Shown here: positions 15,761 through 40,008 of the stretch, in pieces
How the letters are laid out: every line of letters begins with the position of its first letter
Position numbering within the stretch: position 1 is the first letter of the stretch
Source: SAR202 cluster bacterium bin22
Lineage (GTDB): Bacteria; Chloroflexota; Dehalococcoidia; Lucifugimonadales; UBA3495
NCBI GenBank assembly: GCA_002238505.1
Contig: MPMM01000020.1
Location: 1-62,567 of the forward strand
Length of the DNA: 62,567 bases
Direction of reading: 5' to 3'
Program-made: the position numbers and the translations under genes
The notes under the pieces: generated by a model
Told to the model about the DNA's origin: nothing
Database searches by the model: none
The model's input: only the letters and a program-made list of their open reading frames with translations

Positions 15761-15791
15761 ACCGGCTGACCTCGCAGGCGATCGACAACCT

Positions 15792-17825: not shown

Positions 17826-17872
17826 TCTTGTGGATTCTCCACCGATAGGGTTCCGCTGGCGGTCAGGAACCC

Positions 17873-21301: not shown

Positions 21302-21519
21302 AACGCCCTCCTCTTGATAAGTAAAAAATACGCCCATCGCAGCACCGTGGTCAATGCGAGCCTCTCGGAGGCTGCCAGACTTCGACGCCTATTACGGCGG
21401 CTTCCGTTCGGGGGGCAAGCGGCGCTCGTATCACGCCTCCCCCTCGGTGGGGTCATCAGCGGGCTGGGCGTCAGCGGACGAATCCCACTCCGTCTCGTCC
21501 TGCCCAAACGATCCACGGA

Positions 21520-22072: not shown

Positions 22073-22116
22073 GCAACAATGGAATTACCCAGAGGAAGAT
22101 TTTCCGAAATGATTCT

Positions 22117-22725
22117 TTAAACCAGTCCTCCTGGGGATACGGCTGACGAGGCCAGCGCCTTCTTCGCCGTGGCAGGCGAGCAGCCCAGCACCCGGGCAAT
22201 CTGCCTCAACCCCGCTCCGTCCTCCGCCATACGCCGACACTGCTCCAGTTTTTCACCGCCCAGAGCCGGTGGCCGGCCCACCCGTTTCCCCTCCGCCCGG
22301 GCCCGCTCCAGCCCCAACTTGATCCGCTCGCTGGCCGAGTCCACCTGGTAGGCTCCCTGGGCCAGCATGGACCGCCGGAAAAACTTGGCCGCGGCGCTCC
22401 CCTCTCTCGTGTCTATGTTCTCCCTGATGGCTACGATGCCGATGTCCTGGCGGGTCAGGTCCGCCTGGATCCTCACCCCCTCCTGGAAGTTCCGGCTGAA
22501 CCGGTCCAGGAAGGCCACCACTACCGTGTCTCCAGGCTGCACAACCGCCATCAATGCCTGCCAGCCAGGGCGCTGCAGGGAGCGGCCGCTGGCCACGTCG
22601 GTGAAGACTAGGTGGTCGCGGATGCCGTTCTCGGCCAGGATGCGCAGCTGGGTGTCCAGGTTCTTCGAGTCGTCGTCTGCCTTGCTGACCCGGGCGTAAC
22701 CGTAGATCACAGGGAGTGTGCTCAT
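22117..22725 (-). CDS. Serine recombinase (resolvase/invertase family)
   Basis: 202 residues. YGYARVSKADDD carries the catalytic Ser (about residue 14), followed by IRDHLVFTDVASGRSLQRPG and VVVAFLDRFSRN (the conserved Arg pair and LDRxxR helix), the E-helix region, and a C-terminal HTH (KLEQCRRMAEDGAGLRQIARVLGC). Length and order match Tn3-type resolvases and Hin-like invertases. The start at 22725 is favoured over 22740 because TTGGAGACC is correctly spaced before it. Upstream DNA (22735-22885) carries clustered inverted and direct repeats that could be its recombination site. No transposase partner is nearby except Tn3 relics more than 6 kb away. Confidence 0.9.
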   Translation of the reverse strand: MSTLPVIYGYARVSKADDDSKNLDTQLRILAENGIRDHLVFTDVASGRSLQRPGWQALMAVVQPGDTVVVAFLDRFSRNFQEGVRIQADLTRQDIGIVAIRENIDTREGSAAAKFFRRSMLAQGAYQVDSASERIKLGLERARAEGKRVGRPPALGGEKLEQCRRMAEDGAGLRQIARVLGCSPATAKKALASSAVSPGGLV

Positions 22726-22734
22726 GAAGGTCTC

Positions 22735-22885
22735 CAACATTGTTGAAGTGGAAGAATGACACCTGCGCGGGTGTTCAGAAAACGGGCGTTTTTGAACACC
22801 CTCTTCTTGACCTACCCGTCAGCTTTGCGCAGGTGTTCAATAAACCTGTTCAACAATAACTAGCGTTCAACAATACCGTCAAGGG
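22735..22885. promoter_or_regulatory. Repeat cluster, candidate res site of the serine recombinase
   Basis: Contains the palindrome CAACATTGTTG (22735-22745), the inverted pair GGGTGTTCA (22769-22777) and TGAACACCC (22793-22801), and the direct repeat GTTCAACAATA starting near 22848 and again near 22865. TGTTCA occurs repeatedly in both orientations. The position directly upstream of the recombinase gene fits a resolvase binding region or an autoregulatory operator. Confidence 0.5.
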
Positions 22886-23294: not shown

Positions 23295-25925
23295 ATGACG
23301 ATGTTATCCACAAATGTAAACGATCAGATTCGCCGCGAGTACTGGGCAAAATACTGCCAAGCCACTGGCGAAATACATCGACTTGAGCATCACCTAGCCG
23401 ACGTCGGCGCCGTCATGGAGACGTTGCTTGAGATCCCAAGCATCAAGCAGGCTGCAGCGACGGCTGGATATCTGGCCGAACTCGATCCCGTAATCGCGGC
23501 CCGCATGTGCGTTTTCGCTGCCCTACATGACATCGGAAAAACGAACTTGCGCTTTCAAGCCAAGGCAAATCCGTCGCGGGGTGACGGACCCACCGCCAGC
23601 CATACTAAGGACATCATGCAGCTGCTTAATGGGCAGGACATTGACAACCAAGAACGCCTCATGGAAGCCGTACCTTGGCTAACTGACGCCATGGCACATT
23701 GGGACCGGAACGAAGGAGGAACCGTGTGTGGCCTGATTATCGCCATGTTGTCCCACCACGGCCAGCCCGAGCAACTCCATAACGGGCATCAGCCTCGTTC
23801 CAGCCATTGGGTAGATCAGCTTGCCGATTTCAGACAGCAACCATTCGACAAGATCCATGAGATAGCCTCACAAGTCAAACAATGGTTCCCCAAGGCTTTC
23901 AGCCAATCGGGGAATAGATTGCCAGCAAACCCTGAGTTCCAGCACTATTTCCTGGGCCTGTTGATGCTGGCCGACTGGGTCGGGTCGGACATCCGATGGT
24001 TCCCATTCCAAACGGAACCCGACCCGGGGTACATCGAAACGGCCCGGCGGCGCGCCAGGAAAGCGGTGGCAGACATTGGGATGGACACCCGGGGACAGCC
24101 GGTTCCTGATTTTCCTGCTACCCTGGCAATGATCTCGGGCAAACCCCATGCTCAACCCAACGCCACGCAATCAGCGATTATCGAGGTGGACCCAAGGGCA
24201 CAGCTCGTCGTTCTCGAATCGGAGACCGGATCTGGTAAGACGGAAGCGGCCCTGCTGCATTTCCAGCGATTGAAAAGAGAAGGCTGGGTGGACGGACTAT
24301 ACTTCGCGCTGCCGACCCGGGCGGCCGCAACCCAGATTCACCTCCGGGTCGTCAACGCAATCCGTCAGATCATGCCCGACGCAGGAATTGAGCCAGTGCT
24401 GGCAGTGCCTGGATATATCAGGGCCGGTGAACATGAGGGCACAACCCTGGAACGCTACCGTGTTCACTGGGAGGATGGTGCCGACGACGGCAACCGTTGG
24501 TCGGCCGAGGGCTCAAAGCGTTTCCTGACCGCCCAGGTCGCGGTGGGAACCATTGACCAGGCCATGCTGTCAGTGTTGCAGACCAAGCACGCTCACATGC
24601 GCGCCGCCAGCCTGGCCCGCAATCTCCTGGTTATTGACGAGGTGCACGCCTCCGACACCTACATGAGAGGCATCACCCAGGCGCTGGTCCAGAGACATAG
24701 GCTTTTGGGCGGACACACCCTGATGATGTCGGCCACCCTAGGGGCAGTGGCGCGTTCCACCTATCTGGGACATAACATTCCTGACTTCGAAACCTCAAAG
24801 GCTACGCCGTATCCATGCATCACGACCGGCGCCGGCACCCTCCATGTTGAACATGGGGGGCGCCAAAAGCACGTCAACGTACAGACCATGCCCGTGGGGG
24901 AAAAGCCTAGAGACGTGGCAAAAGCTGCCCATGCTGCCCAGCAGGCAGGAGCAAGGGTTCTGGTAATCCGTAACACCGTCAGATTGGCCATTGAGACCGT
25001 CGCAGCACTGGAAGAACAGGCAACTACTCCTTCCGACGCAGTGCTGACTGTTAACGGGAAACCAGTCCCCCATCACAGCCGTTTCGCGCCCGAGGACCGG
25101 AAACTTATGGACCTAGCCGCTGAGGAGGCTCTGGCTGCAGGCAAAGCCCGGCGCGGCATCATCGTAGTGGGCACACAGACCCTGGAGCAATCCCTGGACA
25201 TAGACGCCGATTACCTGATCACCGATCTCTGCCCCATGGACGTGCTGCTGCAACGCATTGGGCGTCTTCATCGCAGACAGGGAATGCACAGACCAGAAGG
25301 ATTCCAGGAGGCTATGTGCATGGTGCTATTGCCCGAGGAAGAGATCGTCGAAATAATTAGCAAAGGCTCCACCACTGGGCTGGGACCTAGAGGGCGGGTC
25401 TACCAAGACTTAAGAGTGATTGAAGCCACCAAGAGGCAAATCACCAGTGGCCAAGTATGGGCAATACCATTAATGAACCGGGAACTCGTCGAAAAATCAA
25501 CCCACCCAGAGAGGCTGAACTCCATAGTGCGCGAATCACCTCAAACCTGGACGGTACATCATAACCAGATGGAGGGCTCGGCCTACGCGGATGCCATAAC
25601 CGCTGACAACATTCTGGTGGACTGGCAGGCGCCGTTCTATGACCCCGCCACCGGCTCAAACGACGAGGTCATATTCAAGGCGAACAACGTGATGACCAGG
25701 CTGGCAGAGCCCAGCATTGACATCGACTTCCCACCCGGAACCATCGGGCCTTTCGGAAACGAAATCAGCAAGATCAGCATTCCCTACTGGATGATAGGCG
25801 AAGGCGCTGCTGACGTACAGGACGCAGTCGCGGAGCTGATAGATTCTGGGCCAGAGAGCTTCTCGTTCCAAGTTCCCACAGGGCAGCGATTCCATTACGC
25901 GCGGCAGGGGCTTCAGCGATATTGA
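23295..25925 (+). CDS. cas3: Cas3 HD nuclease-helicase (type I-E)
   Basis: 876 residues. Degrades target DNA once Cascade has formed an R-loop. N-terminal HD nuclease with HHLADV at about residue 32 and LHDIGKT at about 77, plus downstream HHG (about 154). The superfamily 2 helicase follows: Walker A ETGSGKTEAAL (about 308), DEVHASD (about 447), SATLG (about 479), VGTQTLEQSLDID and QRIGRLHRR (about 653). All key residues look intact. Ribosome site GGGAGAG is six bases before the ATG. A possible -10 (TATAAC, 23253-23258) lies upstream. Its last codons overlap the promoter of the downstream cas8e unit. Confidence 0.95.
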   Translation: MTMLSTNVNDQIRREYWAKYCQATGEIHRLEHHLADVGAVMETLLEIPSIKQAAATAGYLAELDPVIAARMCVFAALHDIGKTNLRFQAKANPSRGDGPTASHTKDIMQLLNGQDIDNQERLMEAVPWLTDAMAHWDRNEGGTVCGLIIAMLSHHGQPEQLHNGHQPRSSHWVDQLADFRQQPFDKIHEIASQVKQWFPKAFSQSGNRLPANPEFQHYFLGLLMLADWVGSDIRWFPFQTEPDPGYIETARRRARKAVADIGMDTRGQPVPDFPATLAMISGKPHAQPNATQSAIIEVDPRAQLVVLESETGSGKTEAALLHFQRLKREGWVDGLYFALPTRAAATQIHLRVVNAIRQIMPDAGIEPVLAVPGYIRAGEHEGTTLERYRVHWEDGADDGNRWSAEGSKRFLTAQVAVGTIDQAMLSVLQTKHAHMRAASLARNLLVIDEVHASDTYMRGITQALVQRHRLLGGHTLMMSATLGAVARSTYLGHNIPDFETSKATPYPCITTGAGTLHVEHGGRQKHVNVQTMPVGEKPRDVAKAAHAAQQAGARVLVIRNTVRLAIETVAALEEQATTPSDAVLTVNGKPVPHHSRFAPEDRKLMDLAAEEALAAGKARRGIIVVGTQTLEQSLDIDADYLITDLCPMDVLLQRIGRLHRRQGMHRPEGFQEAMCMVLLPEEEIVEIISKGSTTGLGPRGRVYQDLRVIEATKRQITSGQVWAIPLMNRELVEKSTHPERLNSIVRESPQTWTVHHNQMEGSAYADAITADNILVDWQAPFYDPATGSNDEVIFKANNVMTRLAEPSIDIDFPPGTIGPFGNEISKISIPYWMIGEGAADVQDAVAELIDSGPESFSFQVPTGQRFHYARQGLQRY

Positions 25926-25951
25926 CAGTGATAGAAATAACAGTTTATGAT
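25922..25951 (+). promoter_or_regulatory. Promoter of the cas8e-cas2 unit
   Basis: A perfect -35 TTGACA (25922-25927, overlapping the cas3 stop), 18-base spacer, and -10 TATGAT (25946-25951, one mismatch to consensus), giving a start near 25958. The region from -10 to the start site is the apparent target of the pseudo-crRNA encoded just downstream. Confidence 0.7.
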
Positions 25952-25963
25952 GTCTCCAGAGTT
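25944..25963 (-). promoter_or_regulatory. Predicted pseudo-crRNA target in the cas8e promoter
   Basis: Read on the minus strand from 25960 down, TCTGGAGACATCATAAA matches the pseudo-spacer TCTGGAGTCATGATAAA at 15 of 17 positions. The first seven are perfect, and mismatches fall at positions 8 and 12. Position 12 is one of the every-sixth bases left unpaired by type I-E Cascade. The adjacent bases (25963-25961) read AAC. An AA at the two outer PAM positions fits type I-E systems, in which the third base is taken up as the variable base after the repeat. Confidence 0.65.
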
Positions 25964-26000
25964 GATATAAAGGCGTTGCCGCCAGTGACGTCTTTAGCTC

Positions 26001-26076
26001 AACTCCCCCGCGAAAGTGGGGATGACCCGTCTGGAGTCATGATAAAGAGCTTGCCCCGTAGTTGCGGGGATCTGTA
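26001..26076 (+). ncRNA. Degenerate mini-CRISPR, crRNA-like regulatory RNA (CreR/CreA type)
   Basis: Two repeat-like units lie in the 5' leader of cas8e. Unit 1 (26001-26028) keeps the CCCC/GGGG stem and ends GGGGATGACCC, against GGGGATGTCCC in the main array. Unit 2 (26049-26076) contains TTGCCCCGTAG and TGCGGGGAT exactly as in the array and diverges only in its last bases. Between them is a pseudo-spacer of only 20 bases starting GTCTGGAG. Unit 1 would give a near-normal 5' handle and unit 2 a Cas6e hairpin. The pseudo-spacer matches the upstream promoter (see that entry). The architecture equals that of known Cas-regulating crRNA-like RNAs. Unit 2 ends 19 bases before the cas8e ATG, so Cas6e cleavage would also cut the mRNA leader. 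Confidence 0.75.
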
Positions 26077-26095
26077 CCTTCAAAGGGAAAACAAT

Positions 26096-27697
26096 ATGAG
26101 CACAAGGGTACCCAAAGTCTTGACGCCGGATCAAGCCCCAATAGGTGAATCAGACGCAGCAGAGGCCAAACGCTTCTGCTTACTTTACCACGAAATCATC
26201 AGCATCAATTACCAGGGTGAAACACGTTTGATGTCGCTCCCAGAGGCATACGCCGCGTTGGCTGAGAACCAGGTTGACGATTTCCCGGGACTCCGGCCCC
26301 ACCAGAAGCACTTCTGGCACGCCACTCTCTGCCAGATAGGCGCTATTGCCATGGTCAACGAGGGAATCGACGACCCTCCGGTGGAACCAGAGGTCTGGCT
26401 GCAAATAATACGCAACCTCACAGTGGGAGAATTTCCGGACGACGAGCCCTGGCACCTCTCCGTTGAAGACTACACCAAGCCGGCTTTCCTGCAACCCGCT
26501 GTGAGTTCCGCTGAGAAAAGGGCCGACTACAAGGGTGAAATATTTACTCCGGACGAAATGGACCTCCCGGTGGGGTCAAAACACCATGATATTCGGAACA
26601 ACAATATGCGGAACGCTACGGCGGAACAGTGGTTATTTGCGCTGGTCGCAAAGCAGACCGGCGGTGGTTACGACGGGAATCGGCTCTTCGGCTCCTCTCG
26701 CATGAACAGCGGGTCTGGCAACCGCCACGGATTCAGCCTTACCCCTTCCACCCGATGGGGCGCCCACGTAAGCAGGGACCTGCAGGTGCTGGTGAACCAG
26801 CACCGTGGGAAGGACGTGAACCACCTCCTGCTTTGGACCAGGCCCTGGGACGGCGGAAGGGACGAGTCCCTCCCTCTACAGCAGCTGGCTCCTCTGCCCC
26901 TTTACGTTGAGGTGTCACGACGGATCCGGCTGGAAGCCGATAGCAAAGGGAGCCTCAAGGGCCGTTATGCAACGAGCCGGGCGCCACGTATCCACGCCAA
27001 GGAAGCCAACGGGATGACACATGACCCCTGGACAATTACCGAAACGGAAAAATCAGTAACTGTCAGCAATGCGGGTTTCGACTACCGGCAAACTTCGCGC
27101 TACCTGGATCCCACGCGGTTCACCCTGCCGTCCCTGGCTAGGCACGTGCCAACGGTAGACGGTGACAACCAAATGCACCTGGTGGCAAGAGCCATTGTGA
27201 GGGGCCAGGGCAAGACAGAGGGTTACCACGAGCGCACCATACCCCTAGGGCGCGGGGCTGCGAGAATGTTCGGCTCAATTTCGGAACAGGCCAGACTTCA
27301 CAGAGCGGCACAGGAGAGATTGAACATCATCGCCGAAGTGCAGAGTATTCTGAGCCACGCAGTAAAAACGTACCTCCAGGATGGAGTAAGCGACGGCAAG
27401 ACTAAGGCGGAACACCAGAAGCTCATCGCCGGCGCCCGCCGTCGAGTGGATCAAGCCATGGACCCCGGGTTCTGGACAGACTTGCAGGAAGAACTGGAAA
27501 GCGCGGACCCGCAACGAACCAAGGCCGAGTGGTGTCACCAAATATTGGTAAAACAGGCCAGGGACATATTGAATGATGTGGTCCGATCCGGACTGTGCCA
27601 CGGCAAGGAGCAATACCGCGCGACTGCCGAAGCGAATGATCTGTTTGGACGCAGGGTAAGCAACAGTTCCAAACTGCCAGAAATACCGGAGGGTTAA
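26096..27697 (+). CDS. cas8e: Cas8e (Cse1/CasA), Cascade large subunit
   Basis: 533 residues. Recognises the PAM and starts R-loop formation. The sequence is divergent from the E. coli protein but has the family order: N-terminal block (RLMSLPEAYAAL), a central Gly/Asn-rich segment (KQTGGGYDGNRLFGSSRMN; RWGAHVSRDLQVLV), RPWDGG, and a C-terminal helical bundle. Its position directly before cse2 is diagnostic. The frame extends 58 codons further back to 25922, across the promoter and mini-CRISPR. The ATG at 26096 is chosen because AAAGGGA precedes it and the extension encodes repeat DNA. The three-base gap to cse2 indicates coupling. Confidence 0.9.
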   Translation: MSTRVPKVLTPDQAPIGESDAAEAKRFCLLYHEIISINYQGETRLMSLPEAYAALAENQVDDFPGLRPHQKHFWHATLCQIGAIAMVNEGIDDPPVEPEVWLQIIRNLTVGEFPDDEPWHLSVEDYTKPAFLQPAVSSAEKRADYKGEIFTPDEMDLPVGSKHHDIRNNNMRNATAEQWLFALVAKQTGGGYDGNRLFGSSRMNSGSGNRHGFSLTPSTRWGAHVSRDLQVLVNQHRGKDVNHLLLWTRPWDGGRDESLPLQQLAPLPLYVEVSRRIRLEADSKGSLKGRYATSRAPRIHAKEANGMTHDPWTITETEKSVTVSNAGFDYRQTSRYLDPTRFTLPSLARHVPTVDGDNQMHLVARAIVRGQGKTEGYHERTIPLGRGAARMFGSISEQARLHRAAQERLNIIAEVQSILSHAVKTYLQDGVSDGKTKAEHQKLIAGARRRVDQAMDPGFWTDLQEELESADPQRTKAEWCHQILVKQARDILNDVVRSGLCHGKEQYRATAEANDLFGRRVSNSSKLPEIPEG

Positions 27698-27699: not shown

Positions 27700-28251
27700 A
27701 TGACGGCCACCTATCAGCAGGATGCCGAGTTGCATCCTGGAGACCCACGACACGCTGCCAGGATTGCCGACAGGTTGACAAGGAGGGACGTAACTCCCGG
27801 AGACATGGCGGCACTCAGAAGACTCAACGAAAAAAGGCCGACCACGGCCATTTTCTGGAAAGTCTGCAATGAACTGGGCATTGAATCGGCCCCGTGGGAT
27901 TTGCTCGAGTCCTGGGCTGCAGTCTTCCGCATGATTGCCATAGGCACAAAGGTGGGTGAAACCCAAACCACCGGTCCCCATGATGGCAACGTACCGCTTG
28001 GCCGGGCTCTAGCGCTGAGCGGCTACAGCCAGAATCGGATGAAGACCTTGTTGGACGCCGATCCGGCAGTGCTGCCGGCCATTGTGGAACGAATGGCCAG
28101 CTACCTGAATGCCAAGAACCAGAAGTTCAACTGGAACGACGGCGCTCGCATCATGCTGACCGGGCGCCGAACTTTCGAACAAAGAGACCTCGACAGAACA
28201 CGCCTAGCGCGGGATTTTTACCGGCAGTTGCGCCAACAGGAAAGACAATAA
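27700..28251 (+). CDS. cse2: Cse2 (CasB/Cas11), Cascade small subunit
   Basis: 183 residues, all helical, with RNEKRP-like and LLESWAAVFRMIAIG blocks followed by LGRALALSGYSQNRMKTLL and a basic C-terminus (RTRLARDFYRQLRQQ). Two copies normally line the R-loop and stabilise the non-target strand. The ATG is two bases after the cas8e stop, so they are translated together. Length is normal for Cse2. Confidence 0.9.
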   Translation: MTATYQQDAELHPGDPRHAARIADRLTRRDVTPGDMAALRRLNEKRPTTAIFWKVCNELGIESAPWDLLESWAAVFRMIAIGTKVGETQTTGPHDGNVPLGRALALSGYSQNRMKTLLDADPAVLPAIVERMASYLNAKNQKFNWNDGARIMLTGRRTFEQRDLDRTRLARDFYRQLRQQERQ

Positions 28252-28274: not shown

Positions 28275-29420
28275 ATGTTTACCCCGAGATTTATCCAGAT
28301 CCACGCGTTGCAGAACTACACTGGTACGCTTCTCAATCGAGACGACACTGGACTGGCCAAGACCATGCCATACGGCGGCGTGCCGCGCACTCGCATCTCC
28401 TCCCAATGCCTGAAGCGTCACTGGAGGAAGTCCGAAGGTGAATACGCCCTTACCGGCATAGCCCCAGACCCGGTACGTACCAAGGAACTGGCCGACTTGG
28501 CCATCCTGAAACGCGTCCGGGAACTTACTCCGGGCCTGAACGAAGACCTGGCAATGCGCGCATTGCAAGCGCTCAACACCGGCCTCTACGGGGACAAGGG
28601 TAATGACTCCAACAGCCGACAACCCCTGCTATTCGGCCAGAATGAAATTGATTACCTGAGCATCAAGACCTCCGATATCCTTAGGGATAACAGTGAACCT
28701 GAGCAAGTAGCTGCCGCAGTGAACAAACTGTTGGAAAAGAAGTCCGAAGGTGACAACTTTCAGGCTTTCCGGCTGAGCCAATCCATGCCGGCCGGCATCA
28801 TCGGAGCTATGTTCGGGCGCATGATGACCAGCGACCCCAACGCCAACATTGACGCAGCGGTGCATGTGGCGCACGCTTTCACCACTCACGGTGAGGAAAA
28901 AGAGATCGACTACTTCACGGCAATGGAGGAACTCTCCCCAGACCCCGGTGCTGGACACATCGGAGACACGGAGATCAACTCTGGCATCTACTATGTCTAC
29001 GTGTGCGTGGACGTAAGAGGCCTCACGGCCAACACCATCGGTTGTCCTCCCGAAAAGTGGCTGGATAACAACCGGGACATTGCAGCAGAAGCCGTCTCAA
29101 AGCTGGTCGGGCTGGTGGCCACAGTATCTCCAGGAGCCAAGAAAGGTTCGACAGCGCCCTACGGGTACGCCAAGGCCCTGCTGGTGGAAGCTGGCGAAAG
29201 ACAGCCCCGAAGCCTCTCAGGCGCCTACCGGCAACCATCCAGACCGGATTTCCAGGATGCCGTCGAGCACCTCAATCTGGAAGTCGAATCCCACGACCAA
29301 GTGTACGGCTCCCATGAGGCCCGCAAGATGTTCGTCAACCTGGGTCCCGAGCCTGACTGTACGCTGAAGGACATCACGGAATGGGTCAGCCAGGTGGTCC
29401 TCTATGGAGACGCCCAATGA
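28275..29420 (+). CDS. cas7: Cas7e (Cse4/CasC), Cascade backbone
   Basis: 381 residues. Typical Cas7e features: FIQIHALQNYTGTLLNRDDT at the start, then AKTMPYGGVPRTRISSQCLK, VDAAVHVAHAFTTH-like helix and NTIGCPPEKW. Six copies form the crRNA-binding spine of Cascade. Ribosome site AAGGAG lies before the ATG. Its TGA overlaps the cas5 start. Confidence 0.95.
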   Translation: MFTPRFIQIHALQNYTGTLLNRDDTGLAKTMPYGGVPRTRISSQCLKRHWRKSEGEYALTGIAPDPVRTKELADLAILKRVRELTPGLNEDLAMRALQALNTGLYGDKGNDSNSRQPLLFGQNEIDYLSIKTSDILRDNSEPEQVAAAVNKLLEKKSEGDNFQAFRLSQSMPAGIIGAMFGRMMTSDPNANIDAAVHVAHAFTTHGEEKEIDYFTAMEELSPDPGAGHIGDTEINSGIYYVYVCVDVRGLTANTIGCPPEKWLDNNRDIAAEAVSKLVGLVATVSPGAKKGSTAPYGYAKALLVEAGERQPRSLSGAYRQPSRPDFQDAVEHLNLEVESHDQVYGSHEARKMFVNLGPEPDCTLKDITEWVSQVVLYGDAQ

Positions 29421-30160
29421 CCAACTCTTACTTGATACTCATATTGCAGGCACCCCTGGTCGCCTACGGCAACGAAGCAGTTGACCGAAAACGGCCGACC
29501 GATTTAATGCCGGGCAGATCCATGCTGACCGGATTGCTCGGGAACGCCATCGGGTACAGCCGGCGGGATGCTGCCGAATTGGACAGCCTGCAAAAACGGT
29601 TAAGATACGCCGCCCGAACGGAACAATTCGGGCATCTCCGAAACCTCAGGGACTTCCATACGGCGCAACTAAGCGCGGACGATGTGGCTTGGACCACATA
29701 CGGGGTCCCCGAAGGCCGCTCCGGCAGTCCGGACACCTACAGGAGCCCAGAAATACGCGAGGTCGATTACCTGACAGAATCGCGAACCGTCGTCGCCATT
29801 ACATTGGACGACACGGCAGAAGGCCCCACCTTGGGCGAAATAGCCGCGGCCGTACAAAAGCCAGCCCGTCCGCTATTCATCGGCAGGAAGTGTTGCCTGC
29901 CGGAACGTCCCATTTTTGAGGCAGTGCTGGATGCTGCCGACGAAACGGAGGCGTTATATTTGGTACCAAATGCGCCTGAAATAATGGAAGCTCAGGCCCA
30001 ATGGGATGGACCGCATCACCACAACAGTATCAGGAAGGACAGAGAGGTTTGGGTCAGCGACCTGAAGGACTGGCACAACGGAGTCCACGTCGGTCGCCGG
30101 ATGGTCAACCGAGGGCAGCAACGATTCAAAGAGACGCTGGCTGACATACCAGGAGTTTAG
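29417..30160 (+). CDS. cas5e: Cas5e (CasD), crRNA 5'-handle binder
   Basis: 247 residues, opening SYLILILQAPLVAYGNEAVD, the RAMP-fold beta strand typical of Cas5e, followed by MPGRSMLTGLLGNAIGYSRR and the late RPLFIGRKCCLP block. It caps the Cascade spine and holds the 5' handle. Start ATG at 29417 overlaps the cas7 stop (ATGA); the earlier in-frame codon at 29381 would overlap cas7 by 40 bases. Confidence 0.93.
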   Translation: MTNSYLILILQAPLVAYGNEAVDRKRPTDLMPGRSMLTGLLGNAIGYSRRDAAELDSLQKRLRYAARTEQFGHLRNLRDFHTAQLSADDVAWTTYGVPEGRSGSPDTYRSPEIREVDYLTESRTVVAITLDDTAEGPTLGEIAAAVQKPARPLFIGRKCCLPERPIFEAVLDAADETEALYLVPNAPEIMEAQAQWDGPHHHNSIRKDREVWVSDLKDWHNGVHVGRRMVNRGQQRFKETLADIPGV

Positions 30161-30162: not shown

Positions 30163-30885
30163 ATGTCAAAGCTATACCTCATGAAAGCCGATCTCGATAT
30201 GGTGAATCTGGCCAAGTACGCTGCGGAGCAACACCATAGCGACCCGGACCGCACCGCCCACTGTCTCGTCACTGAGTCATTCGGAAGAGCTCAGATGCCA
30301 AAGCCCTTTGTCATAAAGACACGGGTAACTGATGGAGCGCTAAAGGGCACGATCTTAGCATATACCCCACTGAGCACTGAGGAATTGAGAGCCATTGCGC
30401 ATCACAACCAAAGATTGGCTCACTCAGCCGTGTTGGATCCCTCCACCATCAACACCGTTGGAGTACCGGACCAGTGGGTTGAAGGACAATCCATACATTT
30501 CGAGGTTAGAGTACGACCGACCAAGCGCACCTCCAGTCGCGAACCCCAAAACCCCAACACAGAACAAGACATCTACCTGGGCTCAACGGAAAACTCCAGC
30601 AGGGCAGAGACATACTGTCAGTGGCTATCGCAACTTATGCAAAGGCAGGGGGGATTGCAGCCGATACCAGAGACAATGGCAATGATTCATTTCGCCAGGA
30701 GACGCGTCCGGCGACAAAACACGTCGAAATGGACCGCTGGGCCGGACGCAACCATTTCCGGAGTGGGTACCGTCATCAACCCGGACCGGATGAAGTTAGC
30801 ACTAGCCGAAGGACTTGGCCGACATAAAGGGTATGGGTATGGAATGTTGCTGCTCCGGCCAAGTGCCCGCCCAGGGAACCTGTAG
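30163..30885 (+). CDS. cas6e: Cas6e (CasE), pre-crRNA endoribonuclease
   Basis: 240 residues. Cuts the repeat hairpins of the pre-crRNA and stays bound to the 3' hairpin. RAMP fold with the diagnostic C-terminal Gly-rich loop GLGRHKGYGYGMLLLRP; a His in the N-terminal region (EQHHSD) is a candidate catalytic residue. AGGAG overlaps the end of cas5 before the ATG, two bases after the cas5 stop. It should also process the two degenerate repeats upstream of cas8e. Confidence 0.94.
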   Translation: MSKLYLMKADLDMVNLAKYAAEQHHSDPDRTAHCLVTESFGRAQMPKPFVIKTRVTDGALKGTILAYTPLSTEELRAIAHHNQRLAHSAVLDPSTINTVGVPDQWVEGQSIHFEVRVRPTKRTSSREPQNPNTEQDIYLGSTENSSRAETYCQWLSQLMQRQGGLQPIPETMAMIHFARRRVRRQNTSKWTAGPDATISGVGTVINPDRMKLALAEGLGRHKGYGYGMLLLRPSARPGNL

Positions 30886-30951: not shown

Positions 30952-31902
30952 ATGCTACGAGGGAGACTGGGGCTTGAAACAGCACGAATCCCCCATTCCG
31001 ACCGGCATGGGCTATTGTGGCTCTCGCGGGGCGCTCTGACAGTCCGGGACGGCACATTACGCTTCGAACGCCATGTTGGCATGGACTCTGACAGCCCCTT
31101 GGAAGCAGGCGAGTACGGCATACCGTTTCAGAGTCTGTCGATGATATTGCTGGGCCCAGGCTCAACTGTAAGTCACGATGCACTCCGACTCATGGCGCGA
31201 CACGGCACCGGATTGGTGGCCGTCGGCGAGGACGGGGTGAGATGCTACACAGCACCTCCCCTAATGCCAGACACCTCCGACATCGCCCGCCAACAGATGC
31301 GAGCCTGGGGAGACCCTGAGGGTGGTCGCATCACCATTGCACGCAAGATGTACGCCCTCCGATTGGGTGAGGTGCCGCCACAAACCGACATCAACGCGTT
31401 GCGCGGCATGGAGGGCGCCAGAATGCGGCGAACCTACCGAAACTTGGCGCAGCAGTATGGCATCGATTGGAAAGGAAGGAGGTACGACAGGGCCGACCCG
31501 ACATGGGCAGATATTCCCAACCAGGCGGTTAACCATGCCTCGGTAGCTGTCACGTCCGCAGCAGTGATAGCGGTAACCGCTGTTGGCGCAATTCCACAGC
31601 TGGGATTTATCCATGAACACAGTGGCGACGCATTTGCGTTAGATATCGCGGATCTTTTTCGCGACACAGTGCTCTTGCCTGCTGCCTTCAAGTCGGCCAA
31701 AGAAGTGATCGATAACCCAAGGCTTGAAATCGAACGCCACACCAGGAAAACCACAGGAGAAATGCTACGAACGGAGCGGGTCATCTCCAAGATGATTGAT
31801 CGAATCAAGACTTTGTTCCAAGACGTTCCTCCTTTGGAACCATTGTCAACAACCTCATGGGACATGGATGACCCTGACAATGGAGAACGAGTCCGAGAAT
31901 GA
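30952..31902 (+). CDS. cas1: Cas1e integrase
   Basis: 316 residues. Inserts new spacers with Cas2. The catalytic residues are visible: Glu in LRGMEGARMR (about residue 153), His in GFIHEHSGDAFALDIADL (about 220), and the acidic pair in the same block. The 66 bases before it make it the first gene after a small gap in the operon. Its last codons overlap cas2 (ATGA). Confidence 0.96.
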   Translation: MLRGRLGLETARIPHSDRHGLLWLSRGALTVRDGTLRFERHVGMDSDSPLEAGEYGIPFQSLSMILLGPGSTVSHDALRLMARHGTGLVAVGEDGVRCYTAPPLMPDTSDIARQQMRAWGDPEGGRITIARKMYALRLGEVPPQTDINALRGMEGARMRRTYRNLAQQYGIDWKGRRYDRADPTWADIPNQAVNHASVAVTSAAVIAVTAVGAIPQLGFIHEHSGDAFALDIADLFRDTVLLPAAFKSAKEVIDNPRLEIERHTRKTTGEMLRTERVISKMIDRIKTLFQDVPPLEPLSTTSWDMDDPDNGERVRE

Positions 31903-32186
31903 CGGTAGTAGTTACCATTAATGTGGAGGGACGCTACCGCGGGTTTCTTGCATCGGCAATGCTGGAGATTGCGCCGGGGGTATACACGTCGCCTGCAATG
32001 ACTGCGGGAATCCGCGATCGCATCTGGGATGTACTGACTGGCTGGCACAACCAATTGGGCAACGGCACGATTGTCATGACTTGGCGAGACCCCACCGCAG
32101 TGGGAGAGCAGCACGTACGTACGTTGGGAGAACCGCCAAAACAGATCGTGGACGCCGACGGCGTGCATTTGGTCAAGTACCGGTAA
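31899..32186 (+). CDS. cas2: Cas2e
   Basis: 95 residues, the CasB-adjacent I-E type: MTVVVTINVEGRYRGFLAS, APGVYTSPAMTAGIRDRIW, and the C-terminal VHLVKYR strand. Forms the central dimer of the Cas1-Cas2 integrase. It overlaps cas1 by four bases and is followed after 63 bases by the first CRISPR repeat. Confidence 0.96.
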   Translation: MTVVVTINVEGRYRGFLASAMLEIAPGVYTSPAMTAGIRDRIWDVLTGWHNQLGNGTIVMTWRDPTAVGEQHVRTLGEPPKQIVDADGVHLVKYR

Positions 32187-32249: not shown

Positions 32250-35200
32250 GGTTGCCCCGTAGGTGCGGGGATGTCCCCGGGCAAGGCAATCGTTGTAAAC
32301 AGGAGTCGGCGGTTGCCCCGTAGGTGCGGGGATGTCCCCATCAATGAAAACTTGGGTTTCGTTTAGACAAAGGTTGCCCCGTAGGTGCGGGGATGTCCCT
32401 CCGACAATGGCGATATGCGCCGGTTTGCGGAAGGTTGCCCCGTAGGTGCGGGGATGTCCCCAATATCCGGCACTCCGGTCGCAACCGGAGTACGGTTGCC
32501 CCGTAGGTGCGGGGATGTCCCTCCTACCTCTGCTTTCGGAAAATCTCGGCTCCTGGTTGCCCCGTAGGTGCGGGGATGTCCCGGTAAAGCGGATAGGATG
32601 GAGTATCAGATATGGGGTTGCCCCGTAGGTGCGGGGATGTCCCTCCGAGCAGGCCGGAGTGATCGATGTGGTCCTTGGTTGCCCCGTAGGTGCGGGGATG
32701 TCCCGAAAGCCCGGGGACAGCACGGATGGAAGGTCAAGGTTGCCCCGTAGGTGCGGGGATGTCCCCCAGAAGTCCGCAACCCTGGCCGCCGAGTTTGCGG
32801 TTGCCCCGTAGGTGCGGGGATGTCCCTTTGGTCGGTAGTGTTAGGAATAGGGTAAACAGGGTTGCCCCGTAGGTGCGGGGATGTCCCTGGTCAAGAGCAG
32901 CACAGGGACTTTGAGCAGCGGGTTGCCCCGTAGGTGCGGGGATGTCCCTGCCGCTGCCCAGGCTGCGACCAGGGAGGAAACACAGGCCCAGGTTGCCCCG
33001 TAGGTGCGGGGATGTCCCTTTGCCAAGAGCCTGGACACCGACCCCGAGACTGGTTGCCCCGTAGGTGCGGGGATGTCCCTTCACGCCTTGGACGTGCGTA
33101 TAGCTCGATTAGGGTTGCCCCGTAGGTGCGGGGATGTCCCGTAGGTATTACGGGCCGCGACGCAAGCCGCAAGGGTTGCCCCGTAGGTGCGGGGATGTCC
33201 CGCTGCCCAGCAGTTTGCCACGCTGACCGATGAGGGTTGCCCCGTAGGTGCGGGGATGTCCCCTGCCTGGACAAAGGCGTCCAGTGGTGGGAACTGGTTG
33301 CCCCGTAGGTGCGGGGATGTCCCCTCAGTATGGCTTGTGTCCAGGATGAGCGACACGGTTGCCCCGTAGGTGCGGGGATGTCCCGGTAACTACCGAAATA
33401 CGCAGGGGCAGGGAATCGGTTGCCCCGTAGGTGCGGGGATGTCCCGACGTCCGTGTGTAAGATCTGCGATTGGGAATTGGTTGCCCCGTAGGTGCGGGGA
33501 TGTCCCGACTGACTACATTGCGAATACCATCGCCCTGGAGGTTGCCCCGTAGGTGCGGGGATGTCCCGATCACGGTGGTTACGGCCAGCATCGCCATCCA
33601 GGTTGCCCCGTAGGTGCGGGGATGTCCCGTAGTCATGGCCGGTCCACAGGTTAGCGCGCCGGGTTGCCCCGTAGGTGCGGGGATGTCCCTCTGGCGGCTC
33701 TCTGTCAGAAGTGCCACAATGGGGTTGCCCCGTAGGTGCGGGGATGTCCCGTAGACAAGATGTGGCCGCAGCCGGACGCCGATGGTTGCCCCGTAGGTGC
33801 GGGGATGTCCCTCTTCCGGCCCCTCAAGAGGCAAGCATAGTCCTGGTTGCCCCGTAGGTGCGGGGATGTCCCCCGCAGGTTCTGGATGCCGAAGAACATG
33901 AACAGGGTTGCCCCGTAGGTGCGGGGATGTCCCTCCTGGGCTGGCCCTTCGAAGACGAAATGGACCGGTTGCCCCGTAGGTGCGGGGATGTCCCTTTCAT
34001 TGTCCTACCGTGTATGGGTAAGGCGTGGGTTGCCCCGTAGGTGCGGGGATGTCCCTCCGGGAGTGCAGCCGGCGGATCTCAACGCCTAGGTTGCCCCGTA
34101 GGTGCGGGGATGTCCCGTTGCACCGGCCGGACCGGTCATCATAACTGGAGGTTGCCCCGTAGGTGCGGGGATGTCCCGTCCGCCGCCGCCCGGATCGTAT
34201 TCAATTGCGCGGTTGCCCCGTAGGTGCGGGGATGTCCCCGCTTGGGGAAGCGGTTGACGCTGCCCGGATGTGGTTGCCCCGTAGGTGCGGGGATGTCCCC
34301 GCGCGAAAGACACGTCGAACATATGGAAGGCGGGTTGCCCCGTAGGTGCGGGGATGTCCCTCACTCCCCCAGCGCACCACGACGCCGCTACCTGGTTGCC
34401 CCGTAGGTGCGGGGATGTCCCGGCGCACGACCGGAAGCGGCGCTGGGAGGGCGCGGTTGCCCCGTAGGTGCGGGGATGTCCCCCATGAGGAATGCCAAGA
34501 GGCAGACATGGCCCGGGTTGCCCCGTAGGTGCGGGGATGTCCCCAGGACCTGCCCGGGGTCACAGTCCGGCGGCGCGGTTGCCCCGTAGGTGCGGGGATG
34601 TCCCGCTCGCGGTTGAGGTTATCGAGGTTTCGGGCTGGGTTGCCCCGTAGGTGCGGGGATGTCCCGGTCAAGGGTATTCTGCGATGCCGGGCCTACAGGG
34701 TTGCCCCGTAGGTGCGGGGATGTCCCGCAGAATCGATCTGTGCGTCCTGCAACTCGACGGGTTGCCCCGTAGGTGCGGGGATGTCCCGGACGAGTAATGC
34801 CTTTTGAGATTAAGCACACTGGTTGCCCCGTAGGTGCGGGGATGTCCCCTATGTACTCGCCAACGAAGACCAGGCCGAGGAGGTTGCCCCGTAGGTGCGG
34901 GGATGTCCCTTTCTACGGGGTATCAGGGTCCGGTGGCCTGGGGGTTGCCCCGTAGGTGCGGGGATGTCCCCACGATCCACCAGGCCCCGCCCACGTGATA
35001 CCGGGTTGCCCCGTAGGTGCGGGGATGTCCCCTACCGGCAGCAGGCGACACTTTGGGCAGCTCGGGTTGCCCCGTAGGTGCGGGGATGTCCCCGCGTACC
35101 GGTGGGCAGGCGAGTAAATCTTGACGGTTGCCCCGTAGGTGCGGGGATGTCCCGGATGGCCCGGAGCGTGAAGGCCCCCTGCTCGGGGTTGCCCCGTAGG

Positions 35201-38200
35201 TGCGGGGATGTCCCTGGAAAACCCAATGGCCGAAGTCCCGGACTATCGGTTGCCCCGTAGGTGCGGGGATGTCCCGGCGTCTCTACTGTCCGTTCCAGGG
35301 TAATAGCGGGTTGCCCCGTAGGTGCGGGGATGTCCCGGGTACTGGCCAAGCCTACGGCCAATGGGTGCGGGTTGCCCCGTAGGTGCGGGGATGTCCCCAG
35401 GCGATGAAGTCCGGCCGCTTGCACGGCACCGGTTGCCCCGTAGGTGCGGGGATGTCCCTCCGCCTTGACCAAAGGGCGGGCGCGGAAGCCGGGTTGCCCC
35501 GTAGGTGCGGGGATGTCCCCCCCCGAAGGTGTTGAGGAGGGCCATGCCGATGGGTTGCCCCGTAGGTGCGGGGATGTCCCGTCTCGTTTTGATGATGATT
35601 CAGTCTCTGAATCGGTTGCCCCGTAGGTGCGGGGATGTCCCTCAGGCGGCCGCCCCGGGCGCGGACCTCCACGTGGTTGCCCCGTAGGTGCGGGGATGTC
35701 CCCCCATTGCCTGTAGCTCTGGCCTAATTCGGTCGGGTTGCCCCGTAGGTGCGGGGATGTCCCCGGTGAGCGTCGCGCGGGTACTGGTGCGGGTGGGGTT
35801 GCCCCGTAGGTGCGGGGATGTCCCCCCCATGGGGTCGGTCGCCGTTAGCGTCAGGGTGGTTGCCCCGTAGGTGCGGGGATGTCCCTTCGTAGCTGGTAAC
35901 GAATACCAGGTTGGAAACGGTTGCCCCGTAGGTGCGGGGATGTCCCGTAGTCCGCCTCCAAAGGCAGGACGTAGGAGACGGTTGCCCCGTAGGTGCGGGG
36001 ATGTCCCGGCTTCCGGCGATTCATCGGCAGTTTCGCCTTCGGTTGCCCCGTAGGTGCGGGGATGTCCCCATGCCAAAGCCTACGACCCCGGCGCGGTCAC
36101 CGGTTGCCCCGTAGGTGCGGGGATGTCCCCTGGACTTGGTACGTTTTGGAACTCGACCCGGAGGTTGCCCCGTAGGTGCGGGGATGTCCCTTTCAGCCTC
36201 GGCCAGCTGCACCGCCTCCCACTGGTTGCCCCGTAGGTGCGGGGATGTCCCGAAGACCAGGGAAAGGACGGCAATCAAGGTCACGGTTGCCCCGTAGGTG
36301 CGGGGATGTCCCCGTAGTACTTAACCGTGCCCTTGATCGCAAAGAGGTTGCCCCGTAGGTGCGGGGATGTCCCCTGCCCCGGCATACCCCATATTTTCCA
36401 GGACCTGGTTGCCCCGTAGGTGCGGGGATGTCCCCCCGCAGGATACCGGGGAGTATGCGGAATTTGTGGTTGCCCCGTAGGTGCGGGGATGTCCCGTTTA
36501 CAGGCAAGGGTCAATGCCCTACAAGCGGGGTTGCCCCGTAGGTGCGGGGATGTCCCTATCGTGGGGGAGTTAACCAGAAAATCCCGTCAGGTTGCCCCGT
36601 AGGTGCGGGGATGTCCCCAGTTACCGAGGCTATCACCTATGAACGCAACCGGTTGCCCCGTAGGTGCGGGGATGTCCCGTCCTGGACCACGCCGCCGCCG
36701 GTGGCCTGGTCGGTTGCCCCGTAGGTGCGGGGATGTCCCGGCATGACCCTGGCGGAGCCGGAGCCGGTCAGCGGTTGCCCCGTAGGTGCGGGGATGTCCC
36801 CGGGATAAGCGCAAGGCCAGGGAGAGACGGTTTGGTTGCCCCGTAGGTGCGGGGATGTCCCCCATATAGCCCGGTTCGCCATAGGGCGGGCGATGGTTGC
36901 CCCGTAGGTGCGGGGATGTCCCCAGTTGGCTATTCCCCGCCCAAAGATCGCCGCCGGTTGCCCCGTAGGTGCGGGGATGTCCCCGCGGCGCATTTGTATG
37001 TATGCTGGCAAGGCGGGGTTGCCCCGTAGGTGCGGGGATGTCCCCCTTTACGGTTCCGGCGGGAGTTTGGGTTATCCGGTTGCCCCGTAGGTGCGGGGAT
37101 GTCCCTTGGTATATGATCCCCGGAAAAATGCCTACGTTGGTTGCCCCGTAGGTGCGGGGATGTCCCCGGGCGTGTAAGGTGGGAATCCAGGTTTTCAACG
37201 GTTGCCCCGTAGGTGCGGGGATGTCCCTTGACATGATAGGGCGGATTCGCCCTAACGCCCGGTTGCCCCGTAGGTGCGGGGATGTCCCGTCTTGGCTATC
37301 CAAGTCTTCTTTCCGATCTTCGGTTGCCCCGTAGGTGCGGGGATGTCCCCCGGATACCTTTGGCGGAGTATGAAGCCATTCGGGTTGCCCCGTAGGTGCG
37401 GGGATGTCCCGGGGTCATATACCAAATGCCGGGGTTGTTGGTCGGTTGCCCCGTAGGTGCGGGGATGTCCCTTTCCCAACCCTGTTTCCTTTTGGGAGTA
37501 AGATGGTTGCCCCGTAGGTGCGGGGATGTCCCCCGCTTTCGGGGTTATCGGGGTTACGCGAATTGGGTTGCCCCGTAGGTGCGGGGATGTCCCCAAAAAT
37601 AGTGAAGGGCGGCAACTTCTCCCGCCGGTTGCCCCGTAGGTGCGGGGATGTCCCGGGGTTCCGGTTATCTGACCGGGTTGGGCGGGAGGTTGCCCCGTAG
37701 GTGCGGGGATGTCCCTGAAAAGGAAACGGCGGGAGACGGTTGTTATTTGGTTGCCCCGTAGGTGCGGGGATGTCCCCTATGATTGGGAATGTTGGCTTTC
37801 CTTCTCCCCGGTTGCCCCGTAGGTGCGGGGATGTCCCCTACTAATGAATAGTTTATACGGGAAATTCGCGGGTTGCCCCGTAGGTGCGGGGATGTCCCGA
37901 GAGGCCCCGGCCCAATGCTCGCCAGCAAATCGGTTGCCCCGTAGGTGCGGGGATGTCCCCCAGGCATACCCGCAGACTACATAGTCCGCAACGGTTGCCC
38001 CGTAGGTGCGGGGATGTCCCGTCTTGCAAAGGGGTGGCGACCATGCCAATCGGGGTTGCCCCGTAGGTGCGGGGATGTCCCGACTCTCAAGGATTTGTAA
38101 CCGGAGAGACTGCCGGTTGCCCCGTAGGTGCGGGGATGTCCCCTGGCCCAGGGCTACCGGGTAGGGAAAGCCGTAGGTTGCCCCGTAGGTGCGGGGATGT

Positions 38201-39972
38201 CCCCAACGATCTTGCATTGGCGGAACGGTTTAGCGGGGTTGCCCCGTAGGTGCGGGGATGTCCCTTCGTGATATTCGTTGCCGCTAACCGGGTCAAGGGT
38301 TGCCCCGTAGGTGCGGGGATGTCCCTTCGTGATATTCGTTGCCGCTAACCGGGTCAAGGGTTGCCCCGTAGGTGCGGGGATGTCCCCTGGCCCAGGGCTA
38401 CCGGGTAGGGAAAGCCGTAGGTTGCCCCGTAGGTGCGGGGATGTCCCCAACGATCTTGCATTGGCGGAACGGTTTAGCGGGGTTGCCCCGTAGGTGCGGG
38501 GATGTCCCTTCGTGATATTCGTTGCCGCTAACCGGGTCAAGGGTTGCCCCGTAGGTGCGGGGATGTCCCCTGTTGCGCGGTTGTCATTCTCCCGTCTGAC
38601 AAGGTTGCCCCGTAGGTGCGGGGATGTCCCTTTCGTAACAGGTTGCACGAAGGTTTCCCCGGGGGTTGCCCCGTAGGTGCGGGGATGTCCCCTGGCAGGT
38701 TTCGTGAAGGGCTATCGCCTTGCGGGTTGCCCCGTAGGTGCGGGGATGTCCCTCGGAATTCTACTATGGCGATTCCTGGCATTGCGGTTGCCCCGTAGGT
38801 GCGGGGATGTCCCTGCGGCCAGGCGCCAGCTCCAAAACAGCGCGGCGGTTGCCCCGTAGGTGCGGGGATGTCCCTGACCCCGCCTACTTCCCGCGCACCG
38901 CTCCAGGGGTTGCCCCGTAGGTGCGGGGATGTCCCGCAAAGTTGCTCCGGGGAGAACTGGAGCAATGGGGTTGCCCCGTAGGTGCGGGGATGTCCCGACG
39001 ACTTTCCCATTCCCCCCGGGTGGACTGCCGGTTGCCCCGTAGGTGCGGGGATGTCCCGTTCTTGACGATCTGGTCGACCTTGGCCTGGTCGGTTGCCCCG
39101 TAGGTGCGGGGATGTCCCTCGTCGCTACCTTCCTTGATTTCCTTCATTTGGGGTTGCCCCGTAGGTGCGGGGATGTCCCGCTGCAACCAGGGATGACAAG
39201 CTGGTCATAATGGGTTGCCCCGTAGGTGCGGGGATGTCGACCCTGGGCTCTCGCTGTCTGAGTCCCTGCCCTGGGTTGCCCCGTAGGTGCGGGGATGTCC
39301 CCTTGTGGTACTTGACCTCGACCTTGCTGAAATCGGTTGCCCCGTAGGTGCGGGGATGTCCCTCACCGGAATCGCAGGAATACTCCCCGCCTTGCGGTTG
39401 CCCCGTAGGTGCGGGGATGTCCCCGCAGTAGGTGGAAATAAACGCCGCCTTGTACTGGTTGCCCCGTAGGTGCGGGGATGTCCCGCGCCGGATGGCGCTT
39501 TTCGTCTTTATGGCCGCGGTTGCCCCGTAGGTGCGGGGATGTCCCCTAACACTGGATCAATCTATGGTCTCCTCTCCCGGTTGCCCCGTAGGTGCGGGGA
39601 TGTCCCTGTCTTGTCAAGCCAAAGTTACCGGGCCACCGAGGTTGCCCCGTAGGTGCGGGGATGTCCCCTGAGCGTAATCACCGGCAGATGCAGAAGTTAT
39701 GGTTGCCCCGTAGGTGCGGGGATGTCCCCGGCTATGGCCTGGTCAATGTCCAGGTGCTCACGGTTGCCCCGTAGGTGCGGGGATGTCCCCTCTACACCAC
39801 CCTGGAGCACCTTACCGAGTCGGGTTGCCCCGTAGGTGCGGGGATGTCCCCTGGAGCGCCGGCGACACCGTCATTGCGGAACCGGTTGCCCCGTAGGTGC
39901 GGGGATGTCCCCTTGCCGTCAGGACCGCGCCGGACATTGCGGACGGTTGCCCCGTAGCTGCGGGGATGTCCC
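32250..39972 (+). CRISPR. Type I-E CRISPR array, about 127 repeats
   Basis: 28-bp repeat beginning GGTTGCCCCG and ending CGGGGATGTCCC, with a CCCCG/CGGGG stem. Spacers are 33 bases (61-bp period) with one exception of 42 bases (32949-32990). Start-to-start arithmetic (7695 = 126 x 61 + 9) gives 127 repeats and 126 spacers. The last repeat (39945-39972) has GCT for GGT in the loop. The repeat at 39213-39240 ends GTCGA instead of GTCCC. The base after each repeat varies, so either the 29th base is PAM-derived and unfixed or spacers are 33 long. Three spacers recur as a duplicated block at 38143-38541. All repeats are otherwise near-identical, so the array looks active. Confidence 0.98.
38143..38541 (+). 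repeat. Duplicated spacer block (A-B-C-C-A-B-C)
   Basis: Spacer A (starts CTGGCCCAGGGC) at 38143 and 38387; B (starts CAACGATCTTGC) at 38204 and 38448; C (starts TTCGTGATATTC) at 38265, 38326 and 38509. Copies are identical, so a recent internal duplication through the repeats is likely. Confidence 0.92.
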
Positions 39973-40008
39973 TTCGTCTGTCATTTACGGGTTTAAACTG
40001 AGCCAAAA

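What the first reader, a model, noticed from the sequence alone, without database searches (positions are those of the whole stretch)
25922..26096. A crRNA-like mini-CRISPR in the cas8e leader appears to target its own promoter
Seen directly: a consensus-like promoter (TTGACA, 18 bases, TATGAT) overlaps the cas3 stop. Behind it lie two degenerate copies of the array repeat (26001-26028 and 26049-26076) around a 20-base pseudo-spacer. From 26030 the pseudo-spacer reads TCTGGAGTCATGATAAA. The minus strand of the promoter from 25960 reads TCTGGAGACATCATAAA: perfect over the first seven bases, 15 of 17 overall. Mismatches fall at 8 and 12, and 12 is a flipped-out position in type I-E. The bases beside it are AAC, compatible with an AAN PAM. 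The target covers the -10 box and start site. Known family: CreR/CreA crRNA-like RNAs repress cas or toxin promoters through partial matches that allow binding but not cleavage. Inference: Cascade loaded with this RNA represses cas8e-cas2 and reports crRNA or Cascade shortage. Because the second pseudo-repeat sits 19 bases before the cas8e ATG, Cas6e cutting would also trim the mRNA.
Basis: partly seen in the sequence, partly recalled or inferred. Interest (0 to 1): 0.95.

Follow-up and report, generated by a model that had tools for sequence, protein, structure and literature searches.

The report
Self-regulating CRISPR RNA in cas8e leader
A tiny two-repeat CRISPR sits in the untranslated start of the messenger for a bacterium's own CRISPR genes and makes a guide RNA that very probably switches that messenger's promoter down; this is a new, unusually well supported example of a known type of CRISPR self-control (CreR), not a new kind of system.

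Summary
Two degenerate repeats (26001-26028, 26049-26076) flank a 20-nt pseudo-spacer in the 5' leader of a type I-E cas8e-cas2 operon. Its guide matches the minus strand of the only consensus promoter there at 15/17 positions, beside AAC. Chance is excluded: none of 123 array spacers and 1 of 5000 shuffled guides does as well. The decisive test was comparative. Sixteen of 20 type I-E loci in this order carry a mini-CRISPR whose different guide matches a nearby upstream site (cas8e promoter or small-gene promoter) with PAM AAB. In 14 scored loci, mismatches are 0/70 at positions 1-5, 0/14 at 7 and 11, but 10/14 at both 6 and 12, the bases flipped out in Cascade. The same-genus relative has a new guide and a matching new promoter site. 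This is Cascade-guided autorepression, published as CreR for I-B, I-E and V-A. Repression and RNA processing remain unshown. Two points go beyond the finding: a conserved 12-bp leader hairpin between promoter and mini-CRISPR, possibly a CreT-like toxin RNA; and relatives whose mini-CRISPR targets a promoter in front of a small CxxC protein gene. New member of a known kind.

The parts
23295..25925 (+). cas3 (HD nuclease-helicase); its stop overlaps the -35 box
   Evidence: PRK09694 E 1e-91, cas3_core E 7.6e-51
25922..25951 (+). sigma-70-like promoter, TTGACA-18-TATGAT, predicted start near 25957-25959
   Evidence: only promoter-like site in 25700-26200, 11 of 12
25944..25960 (-). protospacer-like target of the guide, covering the -10 box to the predicted start site
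   Evidence: 15 of 17 identical to the guide; best site in 1.1 kb
25961..25963 (-). PAM AAC
   Evidence: same AAB motif at 16 of 16 loci; array first spacer base is never A (0/123)
25959..26005 (+). leader RNA hairpin (12 bp + 7 bp, 5-nt loop CGCCA), function unknown
   Evidence: -22.8 kcal/mol, z -5.7; L030 has a 12-bp, 5-nt-loop (AGCCA) hairpin at the same place with 10 of 12 pairs changed on both sides
26001..26028 (+). pseudo-repeat 1: hairpin CCCCGC-GAAA-GUGGGG plus 5' handle ATGACCCG (26022-26029)
   Evidence: folds at -12 kcal/mol like the array repeat; handle 6/7 to window array, 7/7 to L030 array
26029..26048 (+). 20-nt pseudo-spacer; guide TCTGGAGTCATGATAAA(GA) from 26030
26049..26076 (+). 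pseudo-repeat 2: array-like stem CCCCGTAGTTGCGGGG (26054-26069), 3' handle lost
26022..26069 (+). predicted mature CreR RNA (48 nt) after Cas6e cuts at 26021|26022 and 26069|26070; second cut leaves a 26-nt cas8e leader
   Evidence: inference from the type I-E cut site 3' of the stem
26096..27697 (+). cas8e (cse1)
   Evidence: PF09481 E 2.9e-7
27700..28251 (+). presumed cas11 (cse2)
   Evidence: position only; no family match
28275..29420 (+). cas7 (cse4)
   Evidence: TIGR01869 E 1.6e-79
29381..30160 (+). cas5e
   Evidence: TIGR01868 E 2.7e-46
30163..30885 (+). cas6e (cse3), the predicted processing enzyme
   Evidence: PF08798 E 1.2e-23; TIGR01907 E 8.1e-11, just below its cut-off
30952..31902 (+). 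cas1e
   Evidence: TIGR03638 E 1.6e-83
31899..32186 (+). cas2e
   Evidence: TIGR01873 E 4.9e-29
32250..39973 (+). canonical type I-E array, 125 exact repeats plus variant copies, 33-nt spacers

Best explanation
It is a CreR: a mini-CRISPR whose transcript is cut by Cas6e at both degenerate repeats into a crRNA-like RNA (handle AUGACCCG, guide of about 19 nt, 3' stem-loop). Loaded into Cascade, it binds the cas8e promoter next to the AAC PAM by pairing at guide positions 1-7, 9-11 and 13-17. It covers the -10 box and start site and blocks RNA polymerase; the pairing is too short and imperfect for Cas3 destruction. Because the mini-CRISPR is read from the promoter it represses (or by read-through from cas3), this is a negative feedback loop on cas8e-cas2. 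It would relax when normal crRNAs or inhibitors take Cascade away from CreR. Shown here: anatomy, match, PAM consistency, covariation across 16 loci and the Cascade-specific mismatch pattern. Inferred: transcription, processing, repression and sensing. Also inferred: Cas6e cutting at repeat 2 separates CreR from a cas8e mRNA with a 26-nt leader.
For: Exact anatomy. Match beyond chance. Covariation of guide and target in the same-genus relative with the same PAM. Sixteen of 20 type I-E loci of the order have mini-CRISPR, matching site and AAB PAM. Mismatches over 14 loci: 0/70 at positions 1-5, 0/14 at 7 and 11, 10/14 at 6 and 12; the sites are top-ranked with an unbiased 17-nt score in 13 of 14. 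Published CreA pairing is also 1-5 and 7-11, with 6 and 12 free (PMC8501985). The array's first spacer base is never A in 123 (C 51, G 37, T 35), agreeing with AAB. Pseudo-repeat 1 keeps stem and 5' handle while pseudo-repeat 2 keeps the stem and loses the handle in the window and in L030, as expected if only the RNA between them is used.
Against: No RNA or expression data. The window's mismatch at position 8 lies in the seed that was essential in the published CreA cases, though 8, 9 or 10 is mismatched in seven of the 14 scored loci. The relative's promoter is less consensus-like and was not found by the scan (TTGACA present, -10 at an unusual spacing). In most relatives the targeted promoter lies before a small gene, not directly before cas8e, so regulation of a leader product is possible here too. 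PAM use is inferred; no protospacer was found.
Confidence: 0.86

Rival explanations
1. It is a CreTA-type addiction module: the repressed promoter first makes a short toxic structured RNA (the leader hairpin 25959-26005), and the mini-CRISPR is its antitoxin CreA; control of cas8e is a by-product or a second function of the same promoter.
For: A strong leader hairpin lies between promoter and pseudo-repeat 1 (z -5.7). The same-genus relative has a hairpin of the same dimensions and NGCCA loop with 10 of 12 pairs replaced on both sides. The published CreT of H. hubeiense has a 12-nt inverted repeat and lies just upstream of the cas operon (PMC8501985). An Acinetobacter I-F CreTA sits in the cas3-cas8 gap with a 20-nt pseudo-spacer and a toxic hairpin RNA (PMC10097628).
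Against: No Shine-Dalgarno site, start codon and rare-codon mini-ORF as in the tRNA-sequestering CreTs was seen in either leader by inspection. No terminator separates the hairpin from cas8e. Only two leaders are available.
Confidence: 0.1
2. The similarity of pseudo-spacer and promoter is an operator pair: two inverted half-sites for a protein regulator, unrelated to Cascade.
For: In 15 of the 16 loci the two copies are in inverted orientation; the window is a promoter region.
Against: Position 6 and 12 mismatches in an otherwise matched 1-14 block, the AAB motif on one copy only, the fixed offset of the other copy (eight bases after a repeat stem), and different sequences in each species fit no protein operator. 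L058 has the copies in direct orientation.
Confidence: 0.02
3. It is a decayed remnant of an array with an accidental self-targeting spacer, without function.
For: Repeats are degenerate; self spacers are known to be acquired.
Against: Sixteen of 20 loci with different guides retain the match to their own upstream site. Complementarity stops at about 17 nt in nearly all instead of running through 33. Stem pairing is kept in pseudo-repeat 1 while its sequence drifts.
Confidence: 0.01
4. The pseudo-repeats act mainly in cis: Cas6e binds or cuts the cas8e leader and adjusts its translation or stability; the guide match is secondary.
For: Pseudo-repeat 2 is a near-perfect Cas6e hairpin close to the cas8e start, with 26 nt (window) or 22 nt (L030) from cut to ATG.
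Against: Does not explain guide-target covariation, PAM, or the fact that in most of the order's loci the mini-CRISPR is on the other strand.
Confidence: 0.01

Closest known systems
CreR, cas-regulating RNA from modulatory mini-CRISPRs (types I-B, I-E, V-A; named in PMC13131331 and PMC12737573; primary paper not held here)
   Same: Degenerate mini-CRISPR beside cas genes, partial match to a cas promoter, predicted autorepression through the cell's own effector; type I-E is one of the reported types.
   Different: Here the mini-CRISPR lies in the 5' leader of cas8e, downstream of the promoter it targets, has a 20-nt spacer, and is preceded by a conserved hairpin. Whether published CreRs share this layout could not be checked.
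CreTA (Haloarcula type I-B; Acinetobacter type I-F)
   Same: Two degenerate repeats, the first more diverged (PMC9458426), pairing at 1-5 and 7-11 with 6 and 12 free (PMC8501985), own-promoter layout promoter-hairpin-creA-cas operon as in H. hubeiense, cas3-cas8 gap and 20-nt spacer as in Acinetobacter (PMC10097628).
   Different: No recognisable toxin mini-ORF; cas8e follows on the same transcript without a terminator.
CrePA (KilA-N protein toxin repressed by CreA; PMC12737573)
   Same: Resembles the relatives in which the targeted promoter lies in front of a small protein gene.
   Different: The window has no such gene; the relatives' small proteins are CxxC proteins, an HNH-like and an RHH-like protein, not KilA-N.

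Membership tests
CreR | mini-CRISPR with degenerate repeats of the resident array, next to cas genes | tested here: met
CreR | pseudo-spacer partially complementary to the promoter of the cas operon, with a PAM | tested here: met
   15 of 17 at the only consensus promoter before cas8e, AAC; AAB supported by array statistics
CreR | complementarity limited to the PAM-proximal part, too little for cleavage | tested here: met
   match ends at position 17; position 8 mismatched; absence of cleavage itself not testable
CreR | RNA processed by Cas6 and bound by Cascade | not testable with these tools
   hairpins predicted only
CreR | represses cas transcription | not testable with these tools
   needs a reporter assay
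CreR | not coupled to a toxin gene | tested here: inconclusive
   no protein gene between target and cas8e, but a conserved leader hairpin of unknown role
CreTA | creA with pseudo-repeats and partial match to the promoter upstream | tested here: met
CreTA | toxic RNA between promoter and creA, with mini-ORF and stem-loop | tested here: inconclusive
   stem-loop present and structurally conserved in two species; no recognisable mini-ORF with Shine-Dalgarno site; toxicity not testable
CrePA | protein toxin gene under the targeted promoter | tested here: not met
   no separate open reading frame downstream of the target and before cas8e on the + strand

The most novel reading that the evidence does not exclude
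One promoter of this genus drives, in order, a structured RNA (possibly a CreT-like toxin or a sensor), the guide RNA that shuts the promoter, and the cas operon itself. The CRISPR system would then be both self-regulated and guarded against loss by one and the same transcript, a fusion of CreR and CreTA.
Probability: 0.12. Interest if true: 0.75.

Novelty: new member of a known kind. Interest (0 to 1): 0.5.

Why it matters
The locus shows, by sequence alone, that Cascade-guided promoter recognition is under selection across a whole bacterial order: guides and sites have changed together many times while the seed pairs, the two flipped-out positions and the PAM stayed. That supports CreR as a general layer of type I-E control. 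It gives pairs that can be swapped between species, and it points to an unexplained leader RNA and to small CxxC proteins that may be new partners of CRISPR-regulated modules.

Tried and rejected
Protospacers of the array in phage records and relatives, to fix the PAM directly: none in phage records; relatives gave only array-like matches. PAM was then inferred from the first spacer base, assuming as in E. coli that this base comes from the PAM. Rfam search of the leader: only chance matches. Further close relatives of cas8e: one distant Acidobacteria hit in genome contigs; in the class outside the order seven cas8e loci were checked, six without a detectable pair and one (L067) with a weak candidate (12 of 15, AAT). 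A first pass mis-oriented minus-strand loci and was repeated. A tRNA relic suspected in L059: ARAGORN finds no tRNA. An AUG-AUA and an AUG-AGA inside the two pseudo-spacers were considered as CreT-like rare-codon starts and set aside: they lie in the guide itself and only one is in frame with cas8e. The CreR primary paper is not held, so details of published CreR layouts could not be compared.
Full report
WHAT IS THERE. The window holds a complete type I-E system: cas3, cas8e, a presumed cas11, cas7, cas5, cas6e, cas1, cas2 and an array with 33-nt spacers and the repeat GGTTGCCCCGTAGGTGCGGGGATGTCCC. The TTGACA-18-TATGAT promoter is the only promoter-like site in 25700-26200, with 11 of 12 consensus bases. 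Both pseudo-repeats fold like the array repeat (-12.0 and -11.2 against -12.3 kcal/mol). The first keeps the 5' handle (ATGACCC for ATGTCCC); the second keeps the stem and has lost the handle. This pattern is expected if only the RNA between them is used.

CHANCE. On the 15 guide positions that are not flipped out in Cascade, the promoter site scores 14 and the next best site in 1.1 kb scores 10. One of 5000 shuffled guides does as well anywhere in 1.1 kb. Of 123 real spacers of the array none passes 12, and the two that reach 12 lie beside TAC and ATC.

THE COMPARATIVE TEST. All 250 genomes held for the order were searched with cas8e and 20 loci with an upstream region were examined. In the same-genus relative L030 (cas8e 57% identical) a two-repeat mini-CRISPR also lies between promoter and cas8e. 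Its guide TTTGCCAGCCATGAGAA and the site TTTGCTAGACAGGAGAA differ from the window's, but match each other and have the same AAC. In the order, 14 loci were scored in detail, and two more were found with a wider handle pattern (L034, L056): 16 of 20 in all. The PAM is AAC in nine, AAT in six and AAG in one. Mismatches by guide position in the 14: none at 1-5, 10 at 6, none at 7, 2 at 8, 4 at 9, 1 at 10, none at 11, 10 at 12, then 1, 1, 4, 3, 2 for 13-17. Beyond 17 the match is mostly lost. The score used to find sites ignores 6 and 12, so an unbiased 17-nt score was also run: the same site ranks first in 13 of 14 loci and second in L061, the weakest case. This periodic pattern is the known footprint of Cascade R-loops and of published CreA RNAs, where 1-5 and 7-11 are needed and 6 and 12 are free (PMC8501985). 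It is not what a protein operator or a decayed spacer would give.

PAM. The first base of the 33-nt spacers is C 51, G 37, T 35, A 0. In E. coli type I-E this base comes from the PAM (established knowledge). Taken so, the PAM of this system ends in C, G or T, in agreement with the AAB seen beside all targets. A direct protospacer was not found.

SPACER LENGTH. From handle to the next stem there are 45 nt in the array and 32 in the window; relatives lie near 45, 39 and 33. Type I-E Cas7 covers 6 nt, so the window's Cascade would hold about two Cas7 fewer. The clustering near steps of six is suggestive only. The Acinetobacter CreA also has a 20-nt pseudo-spacer (PMC10097628).

HOW IT MOST LIKELY WORKS. 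Promoter 25922-25951 transcribes leader, mini-CRISPR and cas8e onward. Cas6e releases a crRNA-like RNA; Cascade carries it to 25944-25960, over the -10 box and start site, and blocks initiation. CreR is made from the promoter that it closes, with read-through from cas3 as a possible second source. Shown: anatomy, match, covariation, mismatch pattern. Inferred: every step in the cell. The claim of CreR membership rests on reviews naming CreR in types I-B, I-E and V-A (PMC13131331; PMC12737573); the primary paper is not held.

(a) Between the predicted start and pseudo-repeat 1 the leader folds into a 12-bp hairpin with loop CGCCA and an outer 7-bp stem (z -5.7). L030 has a 12-bp hairpin with loop AGCCA at the same place; 10 of the 12 pairs differ on both sides and one on one side, all still paired. 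Such 12-bp, 5-nt-loop hairpins occur only three times on the + strand of the whole window. Published CreT toxins need a stem-loop but also a strong start signal, which is not apparent here. Role unknown. (b) In most other loci of the order the mini-CRISPR is on the opposite strand and its site lies upstream of a small gene placed before cas8e, often a 55-70-aa protein with seven invariant cysteines, in others an HNH-like or RHH-like protein. These look more like CreTA or CrePA arrangements. The window, L030, L031 and L033 have no separate gene between target and cas8e and are CreR-like.

VERDICT. Confirmed observation, supported interpretation, known kind of regulator, very good comparative evidence, one unexplained conserved leader RNA.

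Noticed in passing
L051, L053, L057, L059, L035, L060 (upstream of cas8e, on the coding side of the mini-CRISPR target): A small protein of about 55-70 aa with seven invariant cysteines (B-box/FYVE-like weak matches below cut-off) sits between the site targeted by the mini-CRISPR and cas8e; it may be a new CRISPR-regulated small protein. No match in the window genome or in G003.
   Followed up: partly
L054 and L052, upstream of cas8e: In the same slot L054 has a 165-aa protein with an HNH match (PF13392, E 4e-8) and L052 a small RHH-like protein.
   Followed up: partly
L058, about 190 bases upstream of cas8e: The targeted site lies before a small gene on the opposite strand, and guide and site are in direct orientation, a CreTA-like layout.
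   Followed up: partly
window 25959-26005; L030 at the corresponding place: Structurally conserved 12-bp leader hairpin with NGCCA loop, sequence almost completely changed.
   Followed up: partly
window 38300-38700 (array): A block of three spacers is repeated within the array (CTGGCCCAGGG..., CAACGATCTTG..., TTCGTGATATT..., the last one three times), a recent internal duplication.
   Followed up: no
window 32950-32990: One array spacer of 42 nt among 33-nt ones.
   Followed up: no
L067 (same class, other order): Two repeat-like hairpins upstream of cas8e with a weak candidate target (12 of 15, mismatches include 6 and 12, PAM AAT); a possible CreR outside the order.
   Followed up: partly
window 13559-22740 and 42456-45898: Neighbourhood looks like a defence island: DUF1016/YhcG nuclease 20228-21337, serine resolvase 22117-22740, IS transposase 18122-19915, dynamin-like GTPase 13559-15427, McrB-like AAA 42456-44759 and McrC-like 44642-45898.
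   Followed up: no
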